This document shows, piece by piece, positions 5,386 to 15,525 of a stretch of DNA of 42,872 nt; position 1 is the first letter of the stretch, and every line of letters begins with the position of its first letter. Made by a program: the position numbers and the translations under genes. This stretch comes from Bacteroidota bacterium (GTDB taxonomy: Bacteria; Bacteroidota; Bacteroidia; Flavobacteriales_F; PHOS-HE28): NCBI GenBank assembly GCA_018267055.1, contig JAFDZF010000174.1, forward strand, positions 1 through 42,872, written 5' to 3'. The notes beneath the pieces were generated by a model. It saw nothing but the letters and a program-made list of their open reading frames with translations, was not told the origin of the DNA and did not search any database.

Positions 5386-5496
5386 TTGCGCCGGCCGATC
5401 GCGGGAACCATATTTGGCCGTATCGCATGCGACGGAAAACCTGCCAGCCGGCAGGCAGGGCCGTCGGACCAGCGATCCGCCCTATCCCCCCGTGCC

Positions 5497-6201
5497 ATGA
5501 CCATCCGCTTGACCAAGCAACAGCGCACCCGCATCCTCAACAGCACCGACCTGTATACCGTGATGCAGGCCATCTTCCGGCGCGAGCAGAAGATCGATCG
5601 CAACCGCGAGCACTTCTGGATCATGGGCCTGGCCAATGACCATACGTTGCTCTTCGTGGAGCTCATCGGCCTGGGCAGCATCCGCCGCGTGGGCGTGGAG
5701 CCCATGGACGTGTACAGCCTGGCCCTGCAAAAGCGCGCCGTGCGCATCGTGCTGGTGCACAACCACCCCAGCGGCAAGCTGGTGCCCAGCGAGGAGGACA
5801 AGGACCTTACGGACTACCTCATCCAGGTGGGCGTGTTCGTCAACGTGCCCGTGCTGGATCACCTCATCATCTCCGAAACGGCCTACTTCAGCTTTGCCGA
5901 TGGCGGCCTGCTGGAACAGTTGCAGGAGAGCCGCAAGCATGTGCTGCCCTACCAGGAGCGTTCGCGGCTGCTGAAGGACATCCGGACCAGTGAGGCTCGG
6001 GGGGAGGCAAGGGGGCTTGAGGCTGGTGAGGCTAAAAAGGCGAATGCGATAGCCTTGGCCATGAAGGCGAAAGGCATCGAGGTCGGCGTCATCGCCGAGG
6101 TCACTGGGCTTTCGGTGGCGAAGGTGAAAGGCCTCAAGTTGCCGAAGGCAAAGGCTGCGGGTTCAAAGGCTAAGGCGAAAGGCTCAAAGTCCAAGACATA
6201 G
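5497..6201 (+). CDS. RadC/JAB-domain protein with helical C-terminal tail
   Basis: The central part (about residues 20-140) is a JAB/MPN metalloprotease-type domain as in RadC: VHNHPSG at about 87-93, then acidic residues (SEEDKD) and the closing strand VLDHLIISE. It lacks the helix-hairpin-helix domain found at the N-terminus of standard RadC. The C-terminus differs: a repetitive EARGEARGLEAG stretch, then a helix pair (IALAMKAKGIEV, IAEVTGLSVAKVKGL) like the tails of Rpn/PD-(D/E)XK transposase-family proteins, then a Lys/Ala/Ser-rich end. The ATG at 5497 is preferred to an upstream TTG at 5386. RadC-like JAB proteins are common in mobile and defence-associated DNA; the biochemical role is unsettled. 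Confidence 0.85.
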   Translation: MTIRLTKQQRTRILNSTDLYTVMQAIFRREQKIDRNREHFWIMGLANDHTLLFVELIGLGSIRRVGVEPMDVYSLALQKRAVRIVLVHNHPSGKLVPSEEDKDLTDYLIQVGVFVNVPVLDHLIISETAYFSFADGGLLEQLQESRKHVLPYQERSRLLKDIRTSEARGEARGLEAGEAKKANAIALAMKAKGIEVGVIAEVTGLSVAKVKGLKLPKAKAAGSKAKAKGSKSKT

Positions 6202-6214
6202 ATAGGAGGGCGTT

Positions 6215-6940
6215 ATGGATCGTAAGGGCATGGCAGTGAGTATTGGCAAACGCATACTCACGGCGGATCAACGCAGTTCTTGGGGCGGCCTATCGCCGGC
6301 CCCGGCTACCAGTTGCTATTGGTCCGTCCATTATCGCGAACGGGTTATCGATGTCCTTCGAGCAAGAGCCCGATACTTGGTCGATACCACTTACATGTTC
6401 GCTCACTTCGAAGAATACCTGCGACAGAAGCGGTCGGACAGACCGGAGGATAAGTGTGAAGTCTATTGGACGGCCGAGTATTATGAAAAACCGATGGACC
6501 AGATCCGCATCATTGCAGCCGTCGAGAATTCACTTAAAGCCATGATGCTGGAGAGAGGATATATGGTGCACTATATCCGGGAAGCGGAAGACACTCGCCA
6601 CTTTGCTAAGATGCAAGCAGAGGGCCGCCCCGTTCCTATTGATGATTTTCTGCTCGTCCGAGACTTCATGACGGATGTCTATACCCATCATCCGGTTTTG
6701 GAGGGGCTAAGGAATGAGTGGAAAACCATAGAAGCGAAGCATTTGCTGATGGAACCGCTGACCACCCTGTTCAATATGGATGAGCAGTTCGTGCACCTAT
6801 TGAAGCGAATCCAGCGTGATAGGAACAGGGTGCACTTCATGATCGACTATCCCGGTGCGCATCGGGTCAATCAGTATATCGATGAATGGACTTTCGTGCG
6901 TGATCAATGTCGCTTATTGACGGAATCTGAGAAGCACTAG
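6215..6940 (+). CDS. Possible HEPN-like helical protein, 241 aa
   Basis: I do not recognise a named family with certainty. The protein is predicted mostly helical, with no signal or membrane segment. The segment AAVENSLKAMMLERGYMVHYI (about 101-121) resembles the helix pair of HEPN proteins, and RDRNRVH at 201-207 fits the HEPN nuclease signature R-x(4-6)-H. It starts 13 bp after the RadC-like stop and has a strong ribosome site (TAGGAGG, seven bases before the ATG), unusual in this window, where most genes lack one. The base composition is less GC-rich than the core genes. It is probably co-transcribed with the RadC-like gene. HEPN RNases act in toxin-antitoxin and abortive-infection systems; that role here is inferred. 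Confidence 0.65.
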   Translation: MDRKGMAVSIGKRILTADQRSSWGGLSPAPATSCYWSVHYRERVIDVLRARARYLVDTTYMFAHFEEYLRQKRSDRPEDKCEVYWTAEYYEKPMDQIRIIAAVENSLKAMMLERGYMVHYIREAEDTRHFAKMQAEGRPVPIDDFLLVRDFMTDVYTHHPVLEGLRNEWKTIEAKHLLMEPLTTLFNMDEQFVHLLKRIQRDRNRVHFMIDYPGAHRVNQYIDEWTFVRDQCRLLTESEKH

Positions 6941-7112
6941 ATCTTGGTCGGAGCCGAGATAGGGGCTGTAAGACAGGGTGGGCTTCAGGTGACATCAAGT
7001 TTAACGGCGGACGTCATAGAGTTGACTGTGCACTCAAATGCCATAATCGAAAATTGAGCTAGCACGTCAGGAAGATTCTCAATCGACAAGCGGATAGTGC
7101 GATTCTCGTCCT

Positions 7113-7865
7113 CTAGGGCGGAGGGTGCTCTGAGAAAGAGCCTGCGGGAGGAAAAGCTATGACCGGCGGTTCCGTGTCGTCCCTAGTTGCAGGCGTCGGT
7201 GGTCCTTCTTCTCTGGGGTATGTTCGGTCCCAGACAGGAGCAACGGCTGGAAATCGCCTTTCTAGCTCCTCTGCCATCTTACTGTCAATCTCAATAGTGC
7301 AACCCACAATCATGTCCTGATAAGTCCTTAATTCATCGATGGTGATATTTCTTGCTCGATTTCCATTGTGAGCAACTGCACCACGGTCTGAAATGAATTG
7401 GTTGATTTGCGCATATCCTTCATCAGTCCAGAATCTGGAATATTCATCCATGCCGAAATAGGAATGGAACAACATATTCAAGTTCTCTCGATTTGGAGTA
7501 TTCAATGCCTCGGTTTTTTCTGTGGCATAGGCAAGCCACATATTCTTCCATCCATTATCTGCCAAAAGTATAGGGGATAGATCATTCTTATCCTGCTTAA
7601 TTCTTCGACTTATCGTCTTCTTTACAGCAGTGGGCAAATCGGTTGCACTAGCAGTTTGATCTTGTGCTAGGCGAATTACCTCTAACAACAAGTCTTCGTT
7701 GTATCGTTCCCATGCGGCACAGAGCATAACCATTGCACTGCGAACGAGGTATCCTAATTGTGCTTCTTCGATTCCTTGCGAATTCATGAAGTTATAATGC
7801 GCAGCAATGAGCCTACGAGCGTCAGTTCGCATTGACTGAAATGTGCCATATGCGGTGCTAGGCAT
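7113..7865 (-). CDS. HEPN-domain protein (RiboL-PSP/MAE_28990-like), 250 aa
   Basis: The opening helices, including LVRSAMVMLCAAWERYNEDL at about 40-59, match the HEPN subfamily named RiboL-PSP or MAE_28990/MAE_18760-like. The catalytic-type motif is R161-GAVA-H166, which fits R-x4-H. The C-terminal 45 residues are Pro/Glu-rich and probably disordered. Family members are metal-independent RNases or their inactive relatives, often in defence and toxin systems. The gene lies 11 bp downstream of the DUF1508 gene and is likely co-transcribed with it. Composition is strikingly AT-rich for this genome (22 of 60 bases are G or C at 7441-7500), a sign of recent transfer. Confidence 0.75.
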   Translation of the reverse strand: MPSTAYGTFQSMRTDARRLIAAHYNFMNSQGIEEAQLGYLVRSAMVMLCAAWERYNEDLLLEVIRLAQDQTASATDLPTAVKKTISRRIKQDKNDLSPILLADNGWKNMWLAYATEKTEALNTPNRENLNMLFHSYFGMDEYSRFWTDEGYAQINQFISDRGAVAHNGNRARNITIDELRTYQDMIVGCTIEIDSKMAEELERRFPAVAPVWDRTYPREEGPPTPATRDDTEPPVIAFPPAGSFSEHPPP

Positions 7866-7876
7866 CGATACTGGTC

Positions 7877-8203
7877 TTAGGCTAGGTCGATTGCATTTGC
7901 CATGAGAGCGATTCTCTTAACTGCTTCAACTCCATTATCGCATGCGTGAATTGTTGAGTATACTCCGCTCCTTCCTATTATTTCGCCGTTTGATGCGACT
8001 ATGCTGAAGTAGTATCCTGAGTGAGTTTGATGACGTCGATAGGAGGTGTCGTATGGAGCATTGCGTCTAACACTATCAATCCTCCTAAGCAATGAGGCCT
8101 TGGTGGTGTATCCTTCACTAGCCAAGATGGGCTCGCCGTTGTCTGCGAGCAATCGATATCGATATTCTCCTATTCTGTCGCGGAAGACTTGAAATGTTGC
8201 CAT
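7877..8203 (-). CDS. YegP-type protein with two DUF1508 repeats, 108 aa
   Basis: Two copies of the roughly 48-residue DUF1508 unit are visible: FQVFRDRIGEYRYRLLADNGEPILASEGYT in the first and GYYFSIVASNGEIIGRSGVY in the second, each followed by a helix. This is the YegP arrangement; the family function is not known. The ATG at 8203 is preferred to an upstream in-frame start at 8239 because the domain begins immediately. It is the first gene of a probable two-gene unit with the HEPN gene 11 bp below, and shares its AT-rich composition. DUF1508 proteins do occur alone in core genomes, so a shared job with HEPN is an inference from spacing. Confidence 0.85.
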   Translation of the reverse strand: MATFQVFRDRIGEYRYRLLADNGEPILASEGYTTKASLLRRIDSVRRNAPYDTSYRRHQTHSGYYFSIVASNGEIIGRSGVYSTIHACDNGVEAVKRIALMANAIDLA

Positions 8204-8272
8204 GTGCTTGAGAATAGAGGAGTCCTCTTTCGGTCTCAATAAAGTTTCGCTTGCAAGTTGGCGAAACTGGTC

Positions 8273-8397
8273 TTACAGCGCTCCCTTAAAGAACCGCGCT
8301 ATATACCCGGTGCTCTTCGCTACAGCTCTTCGGGCATGCCGACGAACACCACCGTGCTCTGGCTTCGCCCGCCTCAGGCCTCAGGTTGATCAGGTGA
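8273..8397 (-). pseudogene. uvrA 3'-end remnant
   Basis: The last 40 or so codons of a uvrA gene, read on the minus strand. Its end encodes STGYIARFFKGAL then a stop, against [13 protein letters not shown] at the end of the intact uvrA at 12386. Nucleotide similarity runs on through the TPEEL and GGTVVF region to about 8397, then breaks off. One base is missing near 8318-8325 compared with the intact gene, which shifts the frame, and stop codons follow upstream. The rest of uvrA is absent. It differs at many positions from the local uvrA, so it is an old duplicate or foreign in origin. Confidence 0.82.
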
Positions 8398-8486
8398 CTA
8401 CTGGCAGCCGGTCCAGCCTATGGTTTCTTCACCTGGCCTGATTCGGCATAGTACTTCTTTGCTTCGTGCAATCATCCTCACAGACG

Positions 8487-8502
8487 CTCGGCTGCGGCCG
8501 AG
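8487..8502. repeat. Hairpin CTCGGC / GCCGAG
   Basis: Six-base arms with a four-base loop, extendable by one G-T and one C-G pair. A closely similar but perfect ten-pair hairpin lies at 10634-10657, downstream of the AbiC-like gene. The shared sequence suggests a small dispersed repeat or related terminator. Confidence 0.5.
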
Positions 8503-8564
8503 TGCCCCATAGTGGGTCGTTCTTCTCCTGCATAGTCTCCGCTTTGGGCCCCGCGGAAGCGCTT

Positions 8565-8634
8565 TCACCGCATCGGCAGGATATCCCCACTCACTTCACG
8601 CACTACGCCCATAGCTGGGTCGCTGGCACTAATG
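8565..8634 (-). pseudogene. 3' end of a gliding-type C-terminal-domain gene (fragment A)
   Basis: Read on the minus strand, this encodes ASDPAMGVVREVSGDILPMR and a stop, clearly parallel to ASDPAVSGMRELSGYILLMR at the end of the intact secreted protein at 10911. Upstream of this point similarity stops where the 282-residue gene begins. The matching upstream part of the same domain is found at about 9588-9680, on the far side of that gene. Confidence 0.8.
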
Positions 8635-8642
8635 ATAGGAAG

Positions 8643-9491
8643 TCATCGATGCTTTGTCGAGGCAAGTGTTTGCAGTGACTGCATGACACGTTCATGCAAT
8701 TTCCCCTTCAAGTCATTCTTCCAAGTATCAAGGAAGTAGAACGTGTGGTGATCAGGGACCCAGCGCTTTCGGCTCTGCGGCCTATCCACCTGTTCCTTTC
8801 GGAATACATGGAAGGTTATACGGCCCGTCTCCCTGGGGTCGGCATACATGACCACGAGATCAAAGGCTTTGGTGAACTCCTTGACATTCCCATTCTGCGT
8901 TTCAGCGAACCCGAGGTTCCGCAGTCGTGCGATGGCCCATGCAAGTGACTCTTCGGTGCGTGGCGCATTTCCCCACCACAACTTGTCATCCAATAGTTCT
9001 GCCTCACTGCGCGGCCCCAGGCGATAAAGGGTCTCCCGTTCTCGTCTCGCAGCCTTGATAGCGCCCTGCTCGGCCTGATATTCCGTCTCCGCCTTCCGCG
9101 CAAACGGAAGCCAACTTCCTTTAGCGAGTTCGAATACGGCATTCAGGACGTCACATTGGTGCGCGTTACCCTCGCCCAACAGGTGCCTTCGCAAGCCGTC
9201 AGGCAGTTTGAAGCCTTCAGCATATGGGCCGGATGTGCTGCGTTTGCACAAGGGACAATTCACGCGCGGGCCTGAATAATGAGTCTCCACAGCGAGCGGC
9301 CAAGCGAGCTCGATCACGGATCCGGCCAAGGCCTCTTCCCATTTCCGCGCCTCTTCCCGCGTTTTTAGGCTATAGTAGGTATCGGCTTGAACAAGGATAG
9401 GCTCGGGTAGCAAGTGCAAGATCGTGTGACGTGCACTCCAGAGCTCGCTCTCAAGTTGTCGGATCTTTTCGTCTCGAGGATCAGTCCACAT
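8643..9491 (-). CDS. Hypothetical protein with a zinc-finger-like motif, 282 aa
   Basis: I do not recognise this family. An N-terminal helix (about 1-28) is followed by CPLCKRS near residues 79-85 and then His residues in GLRRHLLGEGNAHQC, a spacing compatible with a C2H2- or C2HC-type zinc site. The middle is charged and helical (AKGSWLPFARKAETEYQAEQ), and the end is basic and aromatic. No signal or membrane segment is present. The gene lies exactly between two pieces of a decayed gliding-domain gene (8565-8634 and about 9588-9680), so it appears to have arrived by insertion. Composition is moderately GC-rich. The zinc finger suggests nucleic-acid or protein binding, but no activity can be named. 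Confidence 0.7.
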   Translation of the reverse strand: MWTDPRDEKIRQLESELWSARHTILHLLPEPILVQADTYYSLKTREEARKWEEALAGSVIELAWPLAVETHYSGPRVNCPLCKRSTSGPYAEGFKLPDGLRRHLLGEGNAHQCDVLNAVFELAKGSWLPFARKAETEYQAEQGAIKAARRERETLYRLGPRSEAELLDDKLWWGNAPRTEESLAWAIARLRNLGFAETQNGNVKEFTKAFDLVVMYADPRETGRITFHVFRKEQVDRPQSRKRWVPDHHTFYFLDTWKNDLKGKLHERVMQSLQTLASTKHR

Positions 9492-9587
9492 ACTTGATGA
9501 CAGTTATAGGATACCCAATAGTATGAACTCCTGTGCCCGATCCCTGATGCGAGCGTCCTCCCCCCGTTGTTCAGTGCTCTTCCTCGC

Positions 9588-9680
9588 CGCAGGTCATTGA
9601 TGCCATCGCCATTGGGGGGGAAGGCATCGGACGCGTCCACCGGCGTGCGGCAGGCATCGGTGACGATGGTGGAGGGGGGC
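9588..9680 (-). pseudogene. Gliding-type C-terminal-domain gene, fragment B
   Basis: On the minus strand this encodes TDACRTPVDASDAF followed by PPNGDGINDLR, matching TDACRTPVYAPDAF and TPNGDGINDVW of the intact gene at about 11137-11212. After GINDL the similarity ends and sequence leading to the 282-residue gene begins; the final codons of the domain reappear at 8565-8634. About 55-60 codons of the domain are missing. The plus-strand gene that follows probably begins at 9705, and a longer reading of it from 9567 would run antisense through this scrap. Confidence 0.8.
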
Positions 9681-9704
9681 GGTGCGTCACAAAATCACTA
9701 CATC

Positions 9705-10610
9705 ATGGACCGCCCGACCGATGAAAAACTAATGAGGGTCTACCATACGTTGGATCGCGTAGCGCCGATACTTTGGCCCATGTTCTGGGTGTTATTGAGC
9801 ATCACCCTTGCCATTGTTCTTGTCTTCGGAGGGCTATTGGTAAAGCACCAGAGCATTGGCTGGTCCGGTCTGGACCTGGGTGCGACGTCGGCCACAGGAA
9901 CCTTTTGGGGGGGCGTGTTGGGCCCCTTGATCGGTGGGATTTCTTCGGTGCTTCTCATCATCACACTCTTGTTCCAGGCGAAGGAGTATGAGCTTTCGAG
10001 GGAGGAGCTGATTAAATCAGTGGCGGCGCAGGCCGATTCTGCACGAGCACACGAGCAACAAAAGGTCCTTTTGCAAGAACAGGTCGCGGACGCCAAGCGA
10101 GAGTCCAATCTGAACATGATCACATTGAGCATCCGGGAATTAAAAGAGGATGCCCGATCATTGGCGTCTGAGGGATTTGGTATTGCTGTATCCGGATTTT
10201 CCTCATTGGTTGCGAGCATTCATCGGTATGTATATGACAACCAAGCGGTGATCGTGGGCCGCGACTTCAACCAAGCAGGGAAACACATGTCCGTCATCTA
10301 CGTGGCCGTGGCGAAGGTCATCCTCATCGCGGATCGTGCACAACGGCTGTATGATGAGATCGGTACACTTGATCTGCCTCCTACCCAACGGACGATCCGG
10401 AAGGCGGATCTGATCATGTTCATCAAGACAGAGCTTACCCGCTTGAACACCGTTGCATTATTGTGGGAGATCCATCAGGCCATGGAGAACGCAAGGACCG
10501 AGTATCCAGGCAGCTTGAAATATCGGCAGCTTGCTACCGAACACTTGAAATCAACTGTGGACCGATTGATGGCATTCTCCAATATGGATTTCATTACGCT
10601 CAACCCGTAG
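9705..10610 (+). CDS. Membrane protein resembling putative phage abortive-infection protein
   Basis: The 301-residue protein has two N-terminal membrane helices (about 20-43 and 67-89), with GTFWGGVLGPLIGG between them, then a coiled coil (EYELSREELIKSVAAQADS, about 94-112 and on to 135) and a helical cytoplasmic part. This layout matches the putative phage abortive-infection family (PF16872, PutAbiC-like), by recall, not by a search. The ATG at 9705 is preferred; the in-frame start at 9567 would translate an antisense pseudogene stretch. The gene is less GC-rich than the core, stands alone, and is followed by a cluster of hairpins. Alternative: a membrane-anchored coiled-coil protein of unrelated role. 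Confidence 0.6.
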   Translation: MDRPTDEKLMRVYHTLDRVAPILWPMFWVLLSITLAIVLVFGGLLVKHQSIGWSGLDLGATSATGTFWGGVLGPLIGGISSVLLIITLLFQAKEYELSREELIKSVAAQADSARAHEQQKVLLQEQVADAKRESNLNMITLSIRELKEDARSLASEGFGIAVSGFSSLVASIHRYVYDNQAVIVGRDFNQAGKHMSVIYVAVAKVILIADRAQRLYDEIGTLDLPPTQRTIRKADLIMFIKTELTRLNTVALLWEIHQAMENARTEYPGSLKYRQLATEHLKSTVDRLMAFSNMDFITLNP

Positions 10611-10633
10611 GGCTACTTCTTCTTCCCCTGACC

Positions 10634-10657
10634 GGCACTCGGCTCCGGCCGAGTGCC
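10634..10657. terminator. Hairpin after the AbiC-like gene
   Basis: A perfect ten-pair stem (GGCACTCGGC with GCCGAGTGCC) and four-base loop, 24 bp past the stop codon. There is no T-run on either side, so termination is likely but not typical. It resembles the hairpin at 8487-8502. Confidence 0.5.
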
Positions 10658-10751
10658 TCGGAGTTCCGGCTAGAAGCGGGCTCCGGGGTGATTCGATCAC
10701 AGCCTTACACATTCATTCGGCTCGGCCAAGCAGAGCCCTGGCTCGGTCCAC

Positions 10752-10821: not shown

Positions 10822-10893
10822 CGTCATCGCGAGCCCGGAGGGCGAAGCGATCGGTGATAAGATCGCTTCGGCGCTTCGCGCTTCGCGATGACG
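10822..10893. repeat. REP-like inverted repeat CGTCATCGCGA ... TCGCGATGACG
   Basis: Long imperfect arms: CGTCATCGCGAG and GCGAAGCGATC on the left, GATCGCTTCG and TCGCGATGACG on the right. The GCGAAGCGATC/GATCGCTTCGC core resembles REP-type palindromes that are dispersed in many genomes and MAGs. No further copy was noticed in this window. With the two hairpins before it, this fills the gap 10611-10910, which holds no supported gene. Confidence 0.65.
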
Positions 10894-10910: not shown

Positions 10911-12311
10911 TCACCGCATCAGCAGAATATATCCGCTCAGCTCCCGCATCCCACTCACAGCCGGATCACTGGCCCGCCCCCGCCAGGGGTAAAGGCCTGG
11001 GGGCATGGGAGCGCCGTCCACGGTGCCGTCCCACGCATCGGCCGCTTCCGCGCCTGTGCGGAGCACCCGGCCCCAGCGGTCGTAGACGCTCCACGCGATC
11101 GCCGCGCCCGGGTTGGCGCGCCATACCGGCCGCCACACATCGTTGATGCCGTCGCCGTTGGGGGTGAAGGCATCGGGCGCATACACCGGCGTGCGGCAGG
11201 CATCGGTAACGGTGATGGCGGCGGACGCAGCGCAATGCTCCGGCGCGTGGGCCTGCAGGGTGTAGGTGCCGGCGGCGTCCACGAGCAGTTCCGCGGTGGT
11301 GTCGCCGGTGGACCACTGCACCTGGGCAGCGGGCGGCTGCACCTGGGCCTGCAACAATAGGCGGGGGGTGCGGCAGAAGTCCACCGTAGTGTCCGGGGGC
11401 AGGGCCAGGGCCACCGGCGTGCCGGCCCGCACCACCAGGGTATCGGTGAGCGGGCATATGTCGTCCACCAGCTGCACGCTGTAGGTGCCGGCGGTATCCA
11501 CGTGGATGGAGGGGCCCGTGGCGCCCGTGGACCACCGGTAGTCCGCGCCGGGAACCGGGTCCAGCACGTGCAGGGTGGCGGCTTCGCAGAGGAGGAGGTC
11601 CGGGCCGAGCAGGGGCCGGGGCACGTGCCGCACGCGCACATCGTCCACATAGTAATAGCTGAACCAGGCGCCGGACCCGGTGGGCGGCATGGGCGCATAG
11701 CCCGTGGTGGCGCCGGTGTGGAAGTTGCCGATGGTGAGGCAGGCATAGGCGGAGTCCGCCGTGAAGCAGCCTTGGATGCGCATCCAGCCGCTGGTGTCGC
11801 TCAGCAGGGTCAGCGCCGTGTGGGCCACCTGCGGCGTGGCCGTGATGGTGAGCATGTCGGCGCGGTGCGGCGGCTGCACGCTGAACAGCGCGCCGATGTC
11901 GTTCACCGCATAGGCCGAGATGTCCGCGAGGTTCACGAAGAATTCGACCGCATAGGCCTCCCCGGGCACCAGGGGGGCGGCCAGCGGATGGCTGGCGTAT
12001 TCGTGGATGTCCGAAAGGGCGGTGTTCTCCGGGCCGTTGAAGCCGATGAAGCCCGCGTAGCCGGTGCCGCCGTGCGCGGGCTGGTGGCCGAACAGGTTGG
12101 TGGGCACGCTCACGGTGAAGGGGGCCCCCTGGCAGGCATTGAAGTAATCGGTGGATCCCGTGGTGGGCGGCGCCCAGCCGGTGGCGTGGTCCAGCTCGCC
12201 CATGAAGGCCGGACAGGCATCCCACTGCTCGAAGCCGCCATTGGGCACCAGCTCCTGCGCCCGCGCGGGGAGGAGGCCGCAGGCCGCGAGCAGGAGAGCG
12301 AACGGGCGCAC
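10911..12311 (-). CDS. Secreted protein with gliding-motility C-terminal domain
   Basis: A type IX secretion cargo of 466 aa. It starts with a signal peptide (about 1-18, cleavage after PARA before QELV), then a jelly-roll-like domain opening with LVPNGGFEQWDACP that often binds carbohydrate or the cell surface, with WFSYYYVDDVRV at its end (about 205). Two PKD/Ig-like stretches follow (YRWSTGATGPSI, VQWSTGDTTAEL). The last 90 residues are the gliding-associated C-terminal domain: FTPNGDGINDVW, VYDRWGRVL, AWDG and GLYPWRG are the standard motifs. The start is GTG. It lies 74 bp downstream of uvrA on the same strand. The domain ends in GYILLMR. Partial relatives of its C-terminus lie at 8565 and 9588. 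Confidence 0.88.
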   Translation of the reverse strand: MRPFALLLAACGLLPARAQELVPNGGFEQWDACPAFMGELDHATGWAPPTTGSTDYFNACQGAPFTVSVPTNLFGHQPAHGGTGYAGFIGFNGPENTALSDIHEYASHPLAAPLVPGEAYAVEFFVNLADISAYAVNDIGALFSVQPPHRADMLTITATPQVAHTALTLLSDTSGWMRIQGCFTADSAYACLTIGNFHTGATTGYAPMPPTGSGAWFSYYYVDDVRVRHVPRPLLGPDLLLCEAATLHVLDPVPGADYRWSTGATGPSIHVDTAGTYSVQLVDDICPLTDTLVVRAGTPVALALPPDTTVDFCRTPRLLLQAQVQPPAAQVQWSTGDTTAELLVDAAGTYTLQAHAPEHCAASAAITVTDACRTPVYAPDAFTPNGDGINDVWRPVWRANPGAAIAWSVYDRWGRVLRTGAEAADAWDGTVDGAPMPPGLYPWRGRASDPAVSGMRELSGYILLMR

Positions 12312-12385: not shown

Positions 12386-15271
12386 CTAGAGCGCGGCCTT
12401 CAGGAACTGCGCCGTATGCCCGGTGCTCTGGGCCACCAGCTCTTCGGGCGTGCCGGTGAACACCACCGTGCCGCCGGCGTCGCCGGCCTCGGGCCCCAGG
12501 TCGATCACGTGGTCGGCCGAGGCGATCACCTCCTGGTTGTGCTCGATCACCAGCACGCTGTGGCCGTTCGCGATCAGCGCGTTCAGCGCCTTCAGCAGCT
12601 TGGCGATGTCGTGGAAGTGCAGGCCGGTGGTGGGCTCATCGAAGATGAAGAGCGTGGGCTTCTCCTCCTGCCCCTTGGTCAGGAACGAGGCCAGCTTGAT
12701 GCGCTGCGCCTCGCCGCCGCTGAGGGTGCTGCTGCTCTGGCCCAGCTTCACATAGCCCAGGCCGGTCTCCTGCAGGGGCTGCAGCTTGTCGATGACGCGC
12801 TTGATGGCGTTGTGCTTGCCCAGGTGCGCATGGAAGAAGGCCAGCGCATCGTCCACGGTGAGGTCCAGCAGCTCGGCCACGTCCTTCCCCTGGAACTTCA
12901 CGTCCAGGATCTCCTCCTTGAAGCGCTTGCCGTGGCAGGCCTCGCAGCGCAGGCTGATGTCGGCCATGAACTGCATCTCGATGTGCACCTCGCCTTCACC
13001 CTGGCACACCTCGCAGCGCCCGCCGTCCACATTGAAGCTGAAGAACGAGGGCTTGTAGCCGCGCACGCGGGCCACCTCCTGCTCGCTGTACAGCTGGCGG
13101 ATCTCGTCGTAGGCCTTCACATAGGTCACCGGGTTGCTGCGCGAGGAGCGGCCGATGGGGTTCTGGTCCACCAGCTCCACGGCCTGGATGCGCCCGATGT
13201 CGCCGGTGAGGGCCTTGAACTCGCCCGGGCGCTCGCTGAAGTTCTCCAGCTCGCGGCGCAGGGCGGGGTAGAGGATGCGCTTCACCAGGGTGGTCTTGCC
13301 GCTGCCGCTTACGCCGGTGACCACCGTGAGCATGTTCAGCGGGAAGGCCACGTCGATGTCCTTCAGGTTGTTCTCGCGGGCGCCCTTCACCGTGATGGTG
13401 TCGCGCACGGCCTTGCGGCGGGCGGGGCGGGCGATGCGGAGGCGGCCGGTGAGGTATTGCGCCGTCAGGCTGTCGCTGTCCATCAGCTCGGCGTGGGTGC
13501 CGCTGAACACCACCTCGCCGCCGTGCGAGCCCGCCTCGGGCCCCATGTCGATGATGTGGTCGGCGGCGCGCATCACCTCTTCGTCGTGCTCCACCACGAT
13601 CACCGTATTGCCCAGGTCGCGCAGCTGCTTCAGCACGTCGATCAGGCGGTGGGTATCGCGCGGGTGCAGGCCGATGCTGGGCTCGTCCAGGATGTACATG
13701 CTGCCCACCAGGCTGCTGCCCAGGGAGGTGGCCAGGTCGATGCGCTGCGTTTCGCCGCCGCTCAGGGTGTTGCTGCGGCGGTCCAGGGTGAGGTAGCCCA
13801 CGCCCACGTCGGCGAGGTAGCGCAGGCGGTTGGTGATCTCCTTCAGCAGGCGCTCGGCCACGGTGCGGTCGTGCGCGTTCAGGTCGATGCCCTGGAAGAA
13901 GGCCAGCGCCTCCGCGATGGGCAGGTGCACCAGCTCGGTGATGTCGCGGCCGGCCACCTTCACGTAGCGGGCCTCCTGCTTCAGGCGGGTGCCGTGGCAG
14001 AGGGTGCAGGTGGTCTTGCCGCGGTAGCGGCTGGCCAGCACGCGGTACTGGATCTTGTAGCTCTTCTGCTCGCAGTACTGGAAGAAGGCATCGATGCCGT
14101 GCACGCCCCGGGCGCCGTTCCAGAGCAGCTTGCGCTGGGCCTCGGTCAGTTCGCGGTAGGGGCGGTGGATGGGGAAGTCGTGCGTGGCGGCGGCCTTGAT
14201 GAAATCGTCCTTCCCCTCGCTCAGCTTCTCGCCGCGCCAGGGGGCCACCGCATCGTCGTACACGGAAAGCGTCTTGTCCGGGATCACCAGGTCGGCATCG
14301 ATGCCGATGATGTTGCCGTAGCCCTCGCAGCGCGGGCAGGCGCCCACGGGGTCGTTGAAGCTGAAGAGGTTCGGTGTGGGCTCCTCGAAGGTGATGCCGT
14401 CCAGCTCGAAGCGGTCGCTGAAGGTGAGGCGCTTGGGCTTGCCCTTGCCGTCCTCGCCCAGGAGCACGCATTCGCCCTGGCCCTCGAAGAAGGCCGTTTC
14501 GGCGCTGTCGGCCACGCGGCCCTCCACCTCCTCGTTGCCGGGGTCCACGGTGATGCGGTCCAGCACCAGGTGCCAGGGGCCGGCGGCCAGCTTCTTGGCG
14601 ATCAGCAGGTCGTCGATGCGCTGCACGTCGGTGCCGTCGTGCACGCGGGCATAGCCCTGCTGCTGCAGCACGTCCAGGTGCTCGCGCAGGGTGCGCCCCG
14701 CGGGCAGGTGGATGGGGCTGAGGAGCAGCACGGTGCCGTCCTTGGGGAAACTGTTGGCGCCGGCCACCACGTCCTCCACGGTGTCGCGCTTCACCTCGCG
14801 GCCGGTCACCGGGCTGTAGGTGCGGCCCACGCGGGCGAAGAGCAGCTTCAGGTGGTCGTACACCTCGGTGCTGGTGCCCACGGTGCTCCGCGGGTTGCTC
14901 GTCATCACCTTCTGCTCGATGGCGATGGCGGGGCTGATGCCGGTGATGCGGTCCACATCGGGCTTCTCCAGGCGCCCCATGAACTGGCGGGCGTAGCTGC
15001 TGAGGCTCACCACGTAGCGGCGCTGGCCCTCGGCGTAGAGGGTGTCGAAGGCCAGGGAGCTTTTCCCGCTGCCGCTCAGGCCGGTGATCACCACCAGCTT
15101 GCCGCGCGGGATGTCCACGTCGATGTTCTTCAGGTTGTGCACGCGGGCGCCGCGCACGCCGATGGCACCCGTAAGGGCGCGGCGCAGGGCGGCTCCCGCA
15201 CCGTCGGGAGAAGGCTTCACCGGGGCGGGGCGGCCGGTGGCGGGCGTTTTCGTGTCGATGGGGGCAGGCAA
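12386..15271 (-). CDS. uvrA: Excinuclease ABC subunit A
   Basis: UvrA is the damage-recognition ATPase of nucleotide excision repair. The sequence shows two ABC modules: Walker [10 protein letters not shown] at about 64-72 and GVSGSGKTT in the second half; signature segments LSGGETQRI and LSGGEAQRI; Walker [13 protein letters not shown] and [11 protein letters not shown]. Zinc-binding pairs are visible (CPRC, CTLC, then CEVC and CEAC). I propose the TTG at 15271 as start, giving 961 aa, near the usual 940-960; the ATG at 15379 would add 36 unmatched residues. Support: a TAAATTCG box ends eight bases upstream of this TTG, the spacing seen at other genes here. It is divergent from the ECF sigma gene. 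Confidence 0.95.
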
Positions 15272-15279
15272 AGGCGGCG

Positions 15280-15287
15280 CGAATTTA
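15280..15287 (-). promoter_or_regulatory. Putative -7 box for uvrA
   Basis: TAAATTCG on the minus strand, one mismatch to TAnnTTTG, eight bases before the proposed TTG start at 15271. It falls inside the longer 15379 reading, which would be odd for a promoter and supports the shorter protein. Confidence 0.45.
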
Positions 15288-15319
15288 GTCAGCGGTGGGC
15301 GGGAGGCCGAGGATCCGCG

Positions 15320-15327
15320 TACATTTG
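15320..15327 (+). promoter_or_regulatory. Putative -7 box for the ECF sigma gene
   Basis: TACATTTG matches TAnnTTTG exactly. The nearest rightward gene begins at 15526, which would give a leader of about 190 bases, longer than for other genes here; either the leader is regulatory or the match is by chance. Confidence 0.35.
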
Positions 15328-15525
15328 GATAGCCTTCAAGGAAGTTGTGCCGGGCGGCACAATACCCCCGGAAAGGCAACGTTCAACCAACAGGGTCCGT
15401 CTGCCTTCTGTTCACCTCCCGGCCGAGCCGAAGCCAGTACCCACCACCTAACCCCCACCGGACAGCATAGCACGACCTCTACGCCGAAGTCCTTCAAACC
15501 CTCTTCGGGCCAAAACGGTAAGGTC

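What the first reader, a model, noticed from the sequence alone, without database searches (positions are those of the whole stretch)
8565..9680. A gliding-type C-terminal-domain gene split by insertion of the 282-residue gene
Fragment B (TDACRTPV, then NGDGINDL) and fragment A (ASDPAMGVVREVSG to stop) are consecutive parts of one C-terminal domain, in the same strand and order, but separated by about 950 bp that consist almost only of the zinc-finger-like gene. About 55-60 codons were lost. No transposase, clear terminal inverted repeat or target duplication is visible, so the gene moved in by some other route, perhaps illegitimate or homologous recombination.
Basis: seen in the sequence. Interest (0 to 1): 0.62.

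Follow-up and report, generated by a model that had tools for sequence, protein, structure and literature searches.

The report
Relics of a decayed tandem duplication
Beside a DNA-repair gene (uvrA) and a secreted-protein gene lie broken, diverged copies of parts of both, and an unrelated foreign gene sits in the gap of one broken copy; this is mostly ordinary genome decay, though how the foreign gene got in is not known.

Summary
On the minus strand, 9585-9681 (B) and 8565-8627 (A) are pieces of one type B T9SS C-terminal domain, separated by 957 bp that hold little but the 282-codon gene (8643-9491). Both match the intact next-door gene Y (10911-12311): B at 84% DNA identity, A at 73%. Nothing else in the genome, and for B nothing in 44 congeners, matches nearly as well, so different paralogues are unlikely. 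157 bp (52 codons) are missing between them.

'A gene split by an insertion' is only part of it. Best reading: a decayed tandem amplification of [uvrA 3' end - Y - hairpin], parts of which were later replaced by foreign genes without a recognisable mobile element. The 282-codon gene is a rare, horizontally scattered orphan with a zinc-site-like motif.

The parts
9585..9681 (-). Relic B: start of a type B T9SS C-terminal domain (copy of Y 11131-11227)
   Evidence: 84% identity to Y; best match in own genome and in 45 genomes of the genus
8565..8627 (-). Relic A: last 20 codons and stop of the same domain (copy of Y 10911-10973)
   Evidence: 73% identity to Y; Y is its only match in the own genome
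8628..9584 (-). Interposed 957 bp replacing 157 bp of the Y copy
   Evidence: border analysis
8643..9491 (-). 282-codon orphan gene with a C-x2-C-x20-H-x9-C motif
8476..8513 (+). Relic D: hairpin copy, 79% identical to 10627-10664; core found nowhere else in the genome
8274..8396 (-). Relic C: frameshifted copy of the last 125 bp of uvrA
   Evidence: 100/123 identical to own uvrA, two 1-nt deletions
10911..12311 (-). Gene Y, intact parent of A and B, ends in a T9SS type B sorting domain
   Evidence: TIGR04131, PF13585
12386..15379 (-). uvrA, intact parent of C
   Evidence: UvrA domains and ABC ATPase
10627..10664 (+). Hairpin D', parent or sister copy of D
9705..10610 (+). Unrelated orphan gene (301 aa, putative membrane protein) filling the space upstream of B
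   Evidence: no Pfam or PADLOC family; phrog_8999 at 1.5e-5; one 29% partial match in the genus

Best explanation
In this lineage the segment [uvrA 3' end - gene Y - hairpin] was duplicated in tandem. Because relic C (the uvrA end) follows rather than precedes the Y relic, the array had at least one more partial unit, or the extra unit was inserted circularly permuted. The redundant copies then decayed. Unrelated, horizontally acquired genes replaced parts of them by illegitimate joining: the 282-codon gene replaced 157 bp of the Y copy, and the plus-strand gene 9705-10610 took the space upstream of B. Shown: identity, order and strand of the relics; Y and uvrA as their nearest relatives; frameshifts in C; absence of transposon marks; scattered distribution of the 282-codon gene. 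Inferred: tandem amplification as the origin, the order of events, and illegitimate recombination as the route.
For: B, A, D and C all match the neighbouring uvrA-Y-hairpin block, above every shuffled control. B and C match the neighbour far better than any other gene in the own genome or in the congeners searched. D occurs only at these two places. B-A-D keeps the order of Y-D'. Relic C has two frameshifts; 16 of 23 substitutions are derived in C against 5 in uvrA when polarised with the nearest relative, and its number of amino-acid changes fits neutral decay. The insert lacks inverted and direct repeats. The 282-codon gene is absent from 196 relatives and found in distant phyla.
Against: The order B-A-D-C needs a third partial unit or a permuted copy; a simple two-copy tandem would put C before B. 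No relic of uvrA was found between D' and B. The D-A spacing (51 bp) differs from D'-Y (246 bp). No relative with an intermediate state was found.
Confidence: 0.62

Rival explanations
1. The debris came in from a very near, unsampled relative: a stretch carrying the foreign genes together with that relative's own uvrA end and Y pieces was integrated beside uvrA-Y by homologous or illegitimate recombination.
For: Relics are 73-84% identical to the parents, a distance like that between species of the genus (own uvrA end against its nearest relative: 101/119). A shows a mild coding-like pattern (10 of 17 differences at third positions, P 0.03). The surrounding stretch has low G+C and several genes absent from relatives.
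Against: C is closer to the own uvrA than to any of 29 congeners' uvrA (score 146 against 96), and B likewise (104 against 53.6 bits). C looks neutrally decayed rather than like a diverged working gene.
Confidence: 0.2
2. One reading: one live Y-type gene was interrupted by a single insertion of the 282-codon gene with a small deletion, and nothing more.
For: A and B are collinear parts of one domain; the insert holds one foreign gene.
Against: The copy also lacks about 360 codons upstream of B, and lies with a dead uvrA end and a duplicated hairpin. No family known here inserts with a 157-bp deletion and without repeats.
Confidence: 0.1
3. The short fragments were copied from the nearby uvrA-Y block as filler during repair of a break by template switching, when the foreign genes were joined in; no full copy of Y ever stood here.
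For: Fragments are short (31-125 bp), come from within 4.2 kb and sit at the borders of foreign genes.
Against: B, A and D keep the order and strand of the parent, which independent switches need not do. A ends exactly at the Y stop, followed by the Y-side hairpin.
Confidence: 0.08

Closest known systems
Tandem duplication and amplification of bacterial DNA by illegitimate recombination
   Same: Direct-order copies of a chromosomal segment beside the parent; such duplication at 9-bp microhomology borders is reported, and linked to activation of newly arrived genes, in PMC11111574 (abstract read). That redundant copies are normally lost is general knowledge.
   Different: Here the copies are old (73-84% identical), broken and partly replaced by foreign genes; the join point could not be mapped.
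T9SS type B sorting domain proteins (TIGR04131; CHU_C, PF13585)
   Same: Relics A and B are the end and the start of such a domain; the intact parent Y passes the curated cut-off.
   Different: The relic lacks the middle of the domain and all of the mature protein.
UvrA excinuclease subunit
   Same: Relic C is a copy of the last 125 bp of this lineage's uvrA.
   Different: Frameshifted, and only the 3' end.

Membership tests
T9SS type B sorting domain gene (gene Y, parent of A and B) | score above the TIGR04131 cut-off at the C-terminus | tested here: met
   53.5 bits vs 35, residues 378-465 of 466
T9SS type B sorting domain gene (relic A+B) | complete domain in one reading frame | tested here: not met
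   157 bp missing and 957 bp interposed
UvrA (parent of C) | UvrA interaction and DNA-binding domains with ABC ATPase | tested here: met
   PF17760, PF17755, PF00005
Transposon or insertion sequence (the 957-bp insert) | terminal inverted repeats | tested here: not met
   no exact repeat of 7 nt or more between the outer 80 bp of each end
Transposon or insertion sequence (the 957-bp insert) | target-site duplication | tested here: not met
   no shared 6-mer between the border windows; shorter duplications not excluded
Transposon or insertion sequence (the 957-bp insert) | encodes a recombinase | tested here: not met
   no Pfam, NCBIfam, PHROG or PADLOC family at a usable E-value
Integron gene cassette | attC site next to the gene and an integrase nearby | not tested
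   no dedicated attC search was run; only 15 bp follow the stop codon inside the insert
Zinc-binding protein (282-codon product) | conserved Cys/His ligand set and a metal-binding fold | tested here: inconclusive
   C-x2-C-x20/21-H-x9-C kept in most of the five members that span it (one has Q for H); structure model too poor to use, pLDDT 48.6

The most novel reading that the evidence does not exclude
Decaying tandem duplicates beside housekeeping genes act as tolerated landing pads, in which single foreign genes accumulate one by one by illegitimate recombination without mobile elements.
Probability: 0.2. Interest if true: 0.5.

Novelty: new member of a known kind. Interest (0 to 1): 0.27.

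Why it matters
It corrects a single-gene 'split by insertion' story to a decayed segmental duplication that includes uvrA, and gives a case of foreign genes settling in redundant DNA without a recognisable transposon. If the pattern recurred, it would help explain how single-gene acquisitions enter chromosomes. As one case it is largely ordinary genome decay.

Tried and rejected
Uninterrupted copy in relatives: none found in 45 genomes of the genus. Same-border copies of the 282-codon gene: its relatives on plasmids and in Oscillospiraceae have no type B domain beside them. Mobile-element origin of the insert: no repeats at the borders and no recombinase family. tRNA target or known RNA: none. 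Phage origin of the 282-codon gene: no match in phage or viral collections. Structure of its product: model too poor to interpret, no solved relative (best E 0.87). That gene 9705-10610 is an abortive-infection gene was a guess from memory and found no support in Pfam or PADLOC.

Full report
What was checked. The finding concerns two coding fragments on the minus strand of window 8565-9680, separated by a 282-codon gene. Both are there. B (TDACRTPVDASDAFPPNGDGINDL) is 9585-9681 and A (ASDPAMGVVREVSGDILPMR, stop) is 8565-8627. The gene 10911-12311(-), called Y here, is an intact 466-aa protein that ends in a T9SS type B sorting domain (TIGR04131, 53.5 bits against a cut-off of 35). B is 84% identical to Y at 11131-11227, and A is 73% identical to the last 63 bp of Y. 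The alignment scores (114 and 41) exceed all of 200 dinucleotide shuffles (maxima 36 and 28).

Same gene or two paralogues? The genome holds many type B genes (36 protein matches to Y in the own genome), so this mattered. Across the whole genome B has Y as its only long match; the next is 45 bp at 80%. The peptide of A matches only Y. In 44 congeners nothing comes near the B-Y match: best 53.6 bits against 104.

On the same strand, just beyond A, 8274-8396 (C) is 100/123 identical to the last 125 bp of uvrA (12386-15379, the gene directly upstream of Y), with two single-base deletions that shift the frame. Compared with uvrA loci from 29 congeners, C is closest to the own uvrA (alignment score 146 against 96 for the next). 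Polarised with that nearest relative, 16 of 23 substitutions are derived in C and 5 in uvrA; the number of amino-acid changes is what neutral change would give. C is thus a dead copy made in this lineage or in a very near, unsampled one. Between A and C lies a hairpin (8476-8513) whose core occurs at only one other place in 3.86 Mb, beyond the end of Y (10627-10664).

Model. The block uvrA-Y-hairpin has been copied in direct order beside itself. On the minus strand the elements run: uvrA, Y, hairpin, [gene 9705-10610 on the other strand], B, [282-codon gene], A, hairpin, C. A plain two-copy tandem would place the uvrA end before B, so one must assume a third partial unit, as arises in amplifications, or a permuted insertion. 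Tandem duplication by illegitimate recombination is known; one paper reports it at 9-bp microhomologies and links it to activation of newly acquired genes (PMC11111574). That link is only suggestive here. The model as a whole is inference from anatomy and nearest-relative searches.

The insert. The 957 bp between B and A replace 157 bp of the copy (52 codons plus one base). No exact inverted repeat of 7 nt or more lies at its ends and no shared 6-mer at its borders. The gene fills it except for 93 bp before and 15 bp after. The product has no family match and no phage or viral relative. Relatives at about 30-37% identity lie on Bradyrhizobium and Cupriavidus plasmids and in two Oscillospiraceae MAGs; there is none in 196 near relatives, and only one weak partial match (E 0.002) among 395 genomes of the phylum. 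Its conserved core, C-x2-C-x20/21-H-x9-C, suggests a zinc site; the structure model was too poor to help. None of the fetched relatives lies beside a type B domain, so the borders are not shared.

Was the copy alive when hit? A has 10 of 17 differences at third positions and fewer amino-acid changes than a neutral simulation (P 0.03); B shows no such sign (P 0.51), and the pooled P is 0.06. This does not decide whether the insertion killed a gene or settled in dead DNA. The copy has also lost everything upstream of B (about 360 codons), so the insertion is not its only damage.

Limits. The window is one whole contig (C82, 42,872 bp) of a 203-contig draft genome, and continuity could not be checked against reads. 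The relics are 73-84% identical to their parents, which makes them unlikely to be assembly duplicates. Up to 1.5 kb beyond uvrA was read in 29 congeners, where the longest open frames are not Y; the ten fetched Y-homologue regions (6-20 kb) hold no uvrA match. The uvrA-Y neighbourhood itself thus seems particular to this lineage.

Noticed in passing
window 5386-6201 (+): RadC JAB domain (residues 52-174) directly followed by a stretch like the C-terminal tail of the Rpn / putative transposase family TIGR01784 (residues 177-248): an apparent gene chimera at the edge of the low-GC stretch.
   Followed up: no
window 6000-10600: G+C falls from about 66% to 46-57% over a stretch holding a HEPN RiboL-PSP gene (7113-7865), a DUF1508 gene (7877-8239) and orphans. 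The HEPN gene is absent from 196 relatives, with 28-29% matches on Pseudomonas and Streptomyces plasmids.
   Followed up: partly
window 10823-10893: Large palindrome (CGTCATCGCGA ... TCGCGATGACG) downstream of gene Y, looking like a dispersed intergenic repeat.
   Followed up: no
G000:C130:13831-15432: A second, more distant UvrA-like gene in the same genome (50% identical over the C-terminal 200 residues); most congeners also have two.
   Followed up: no
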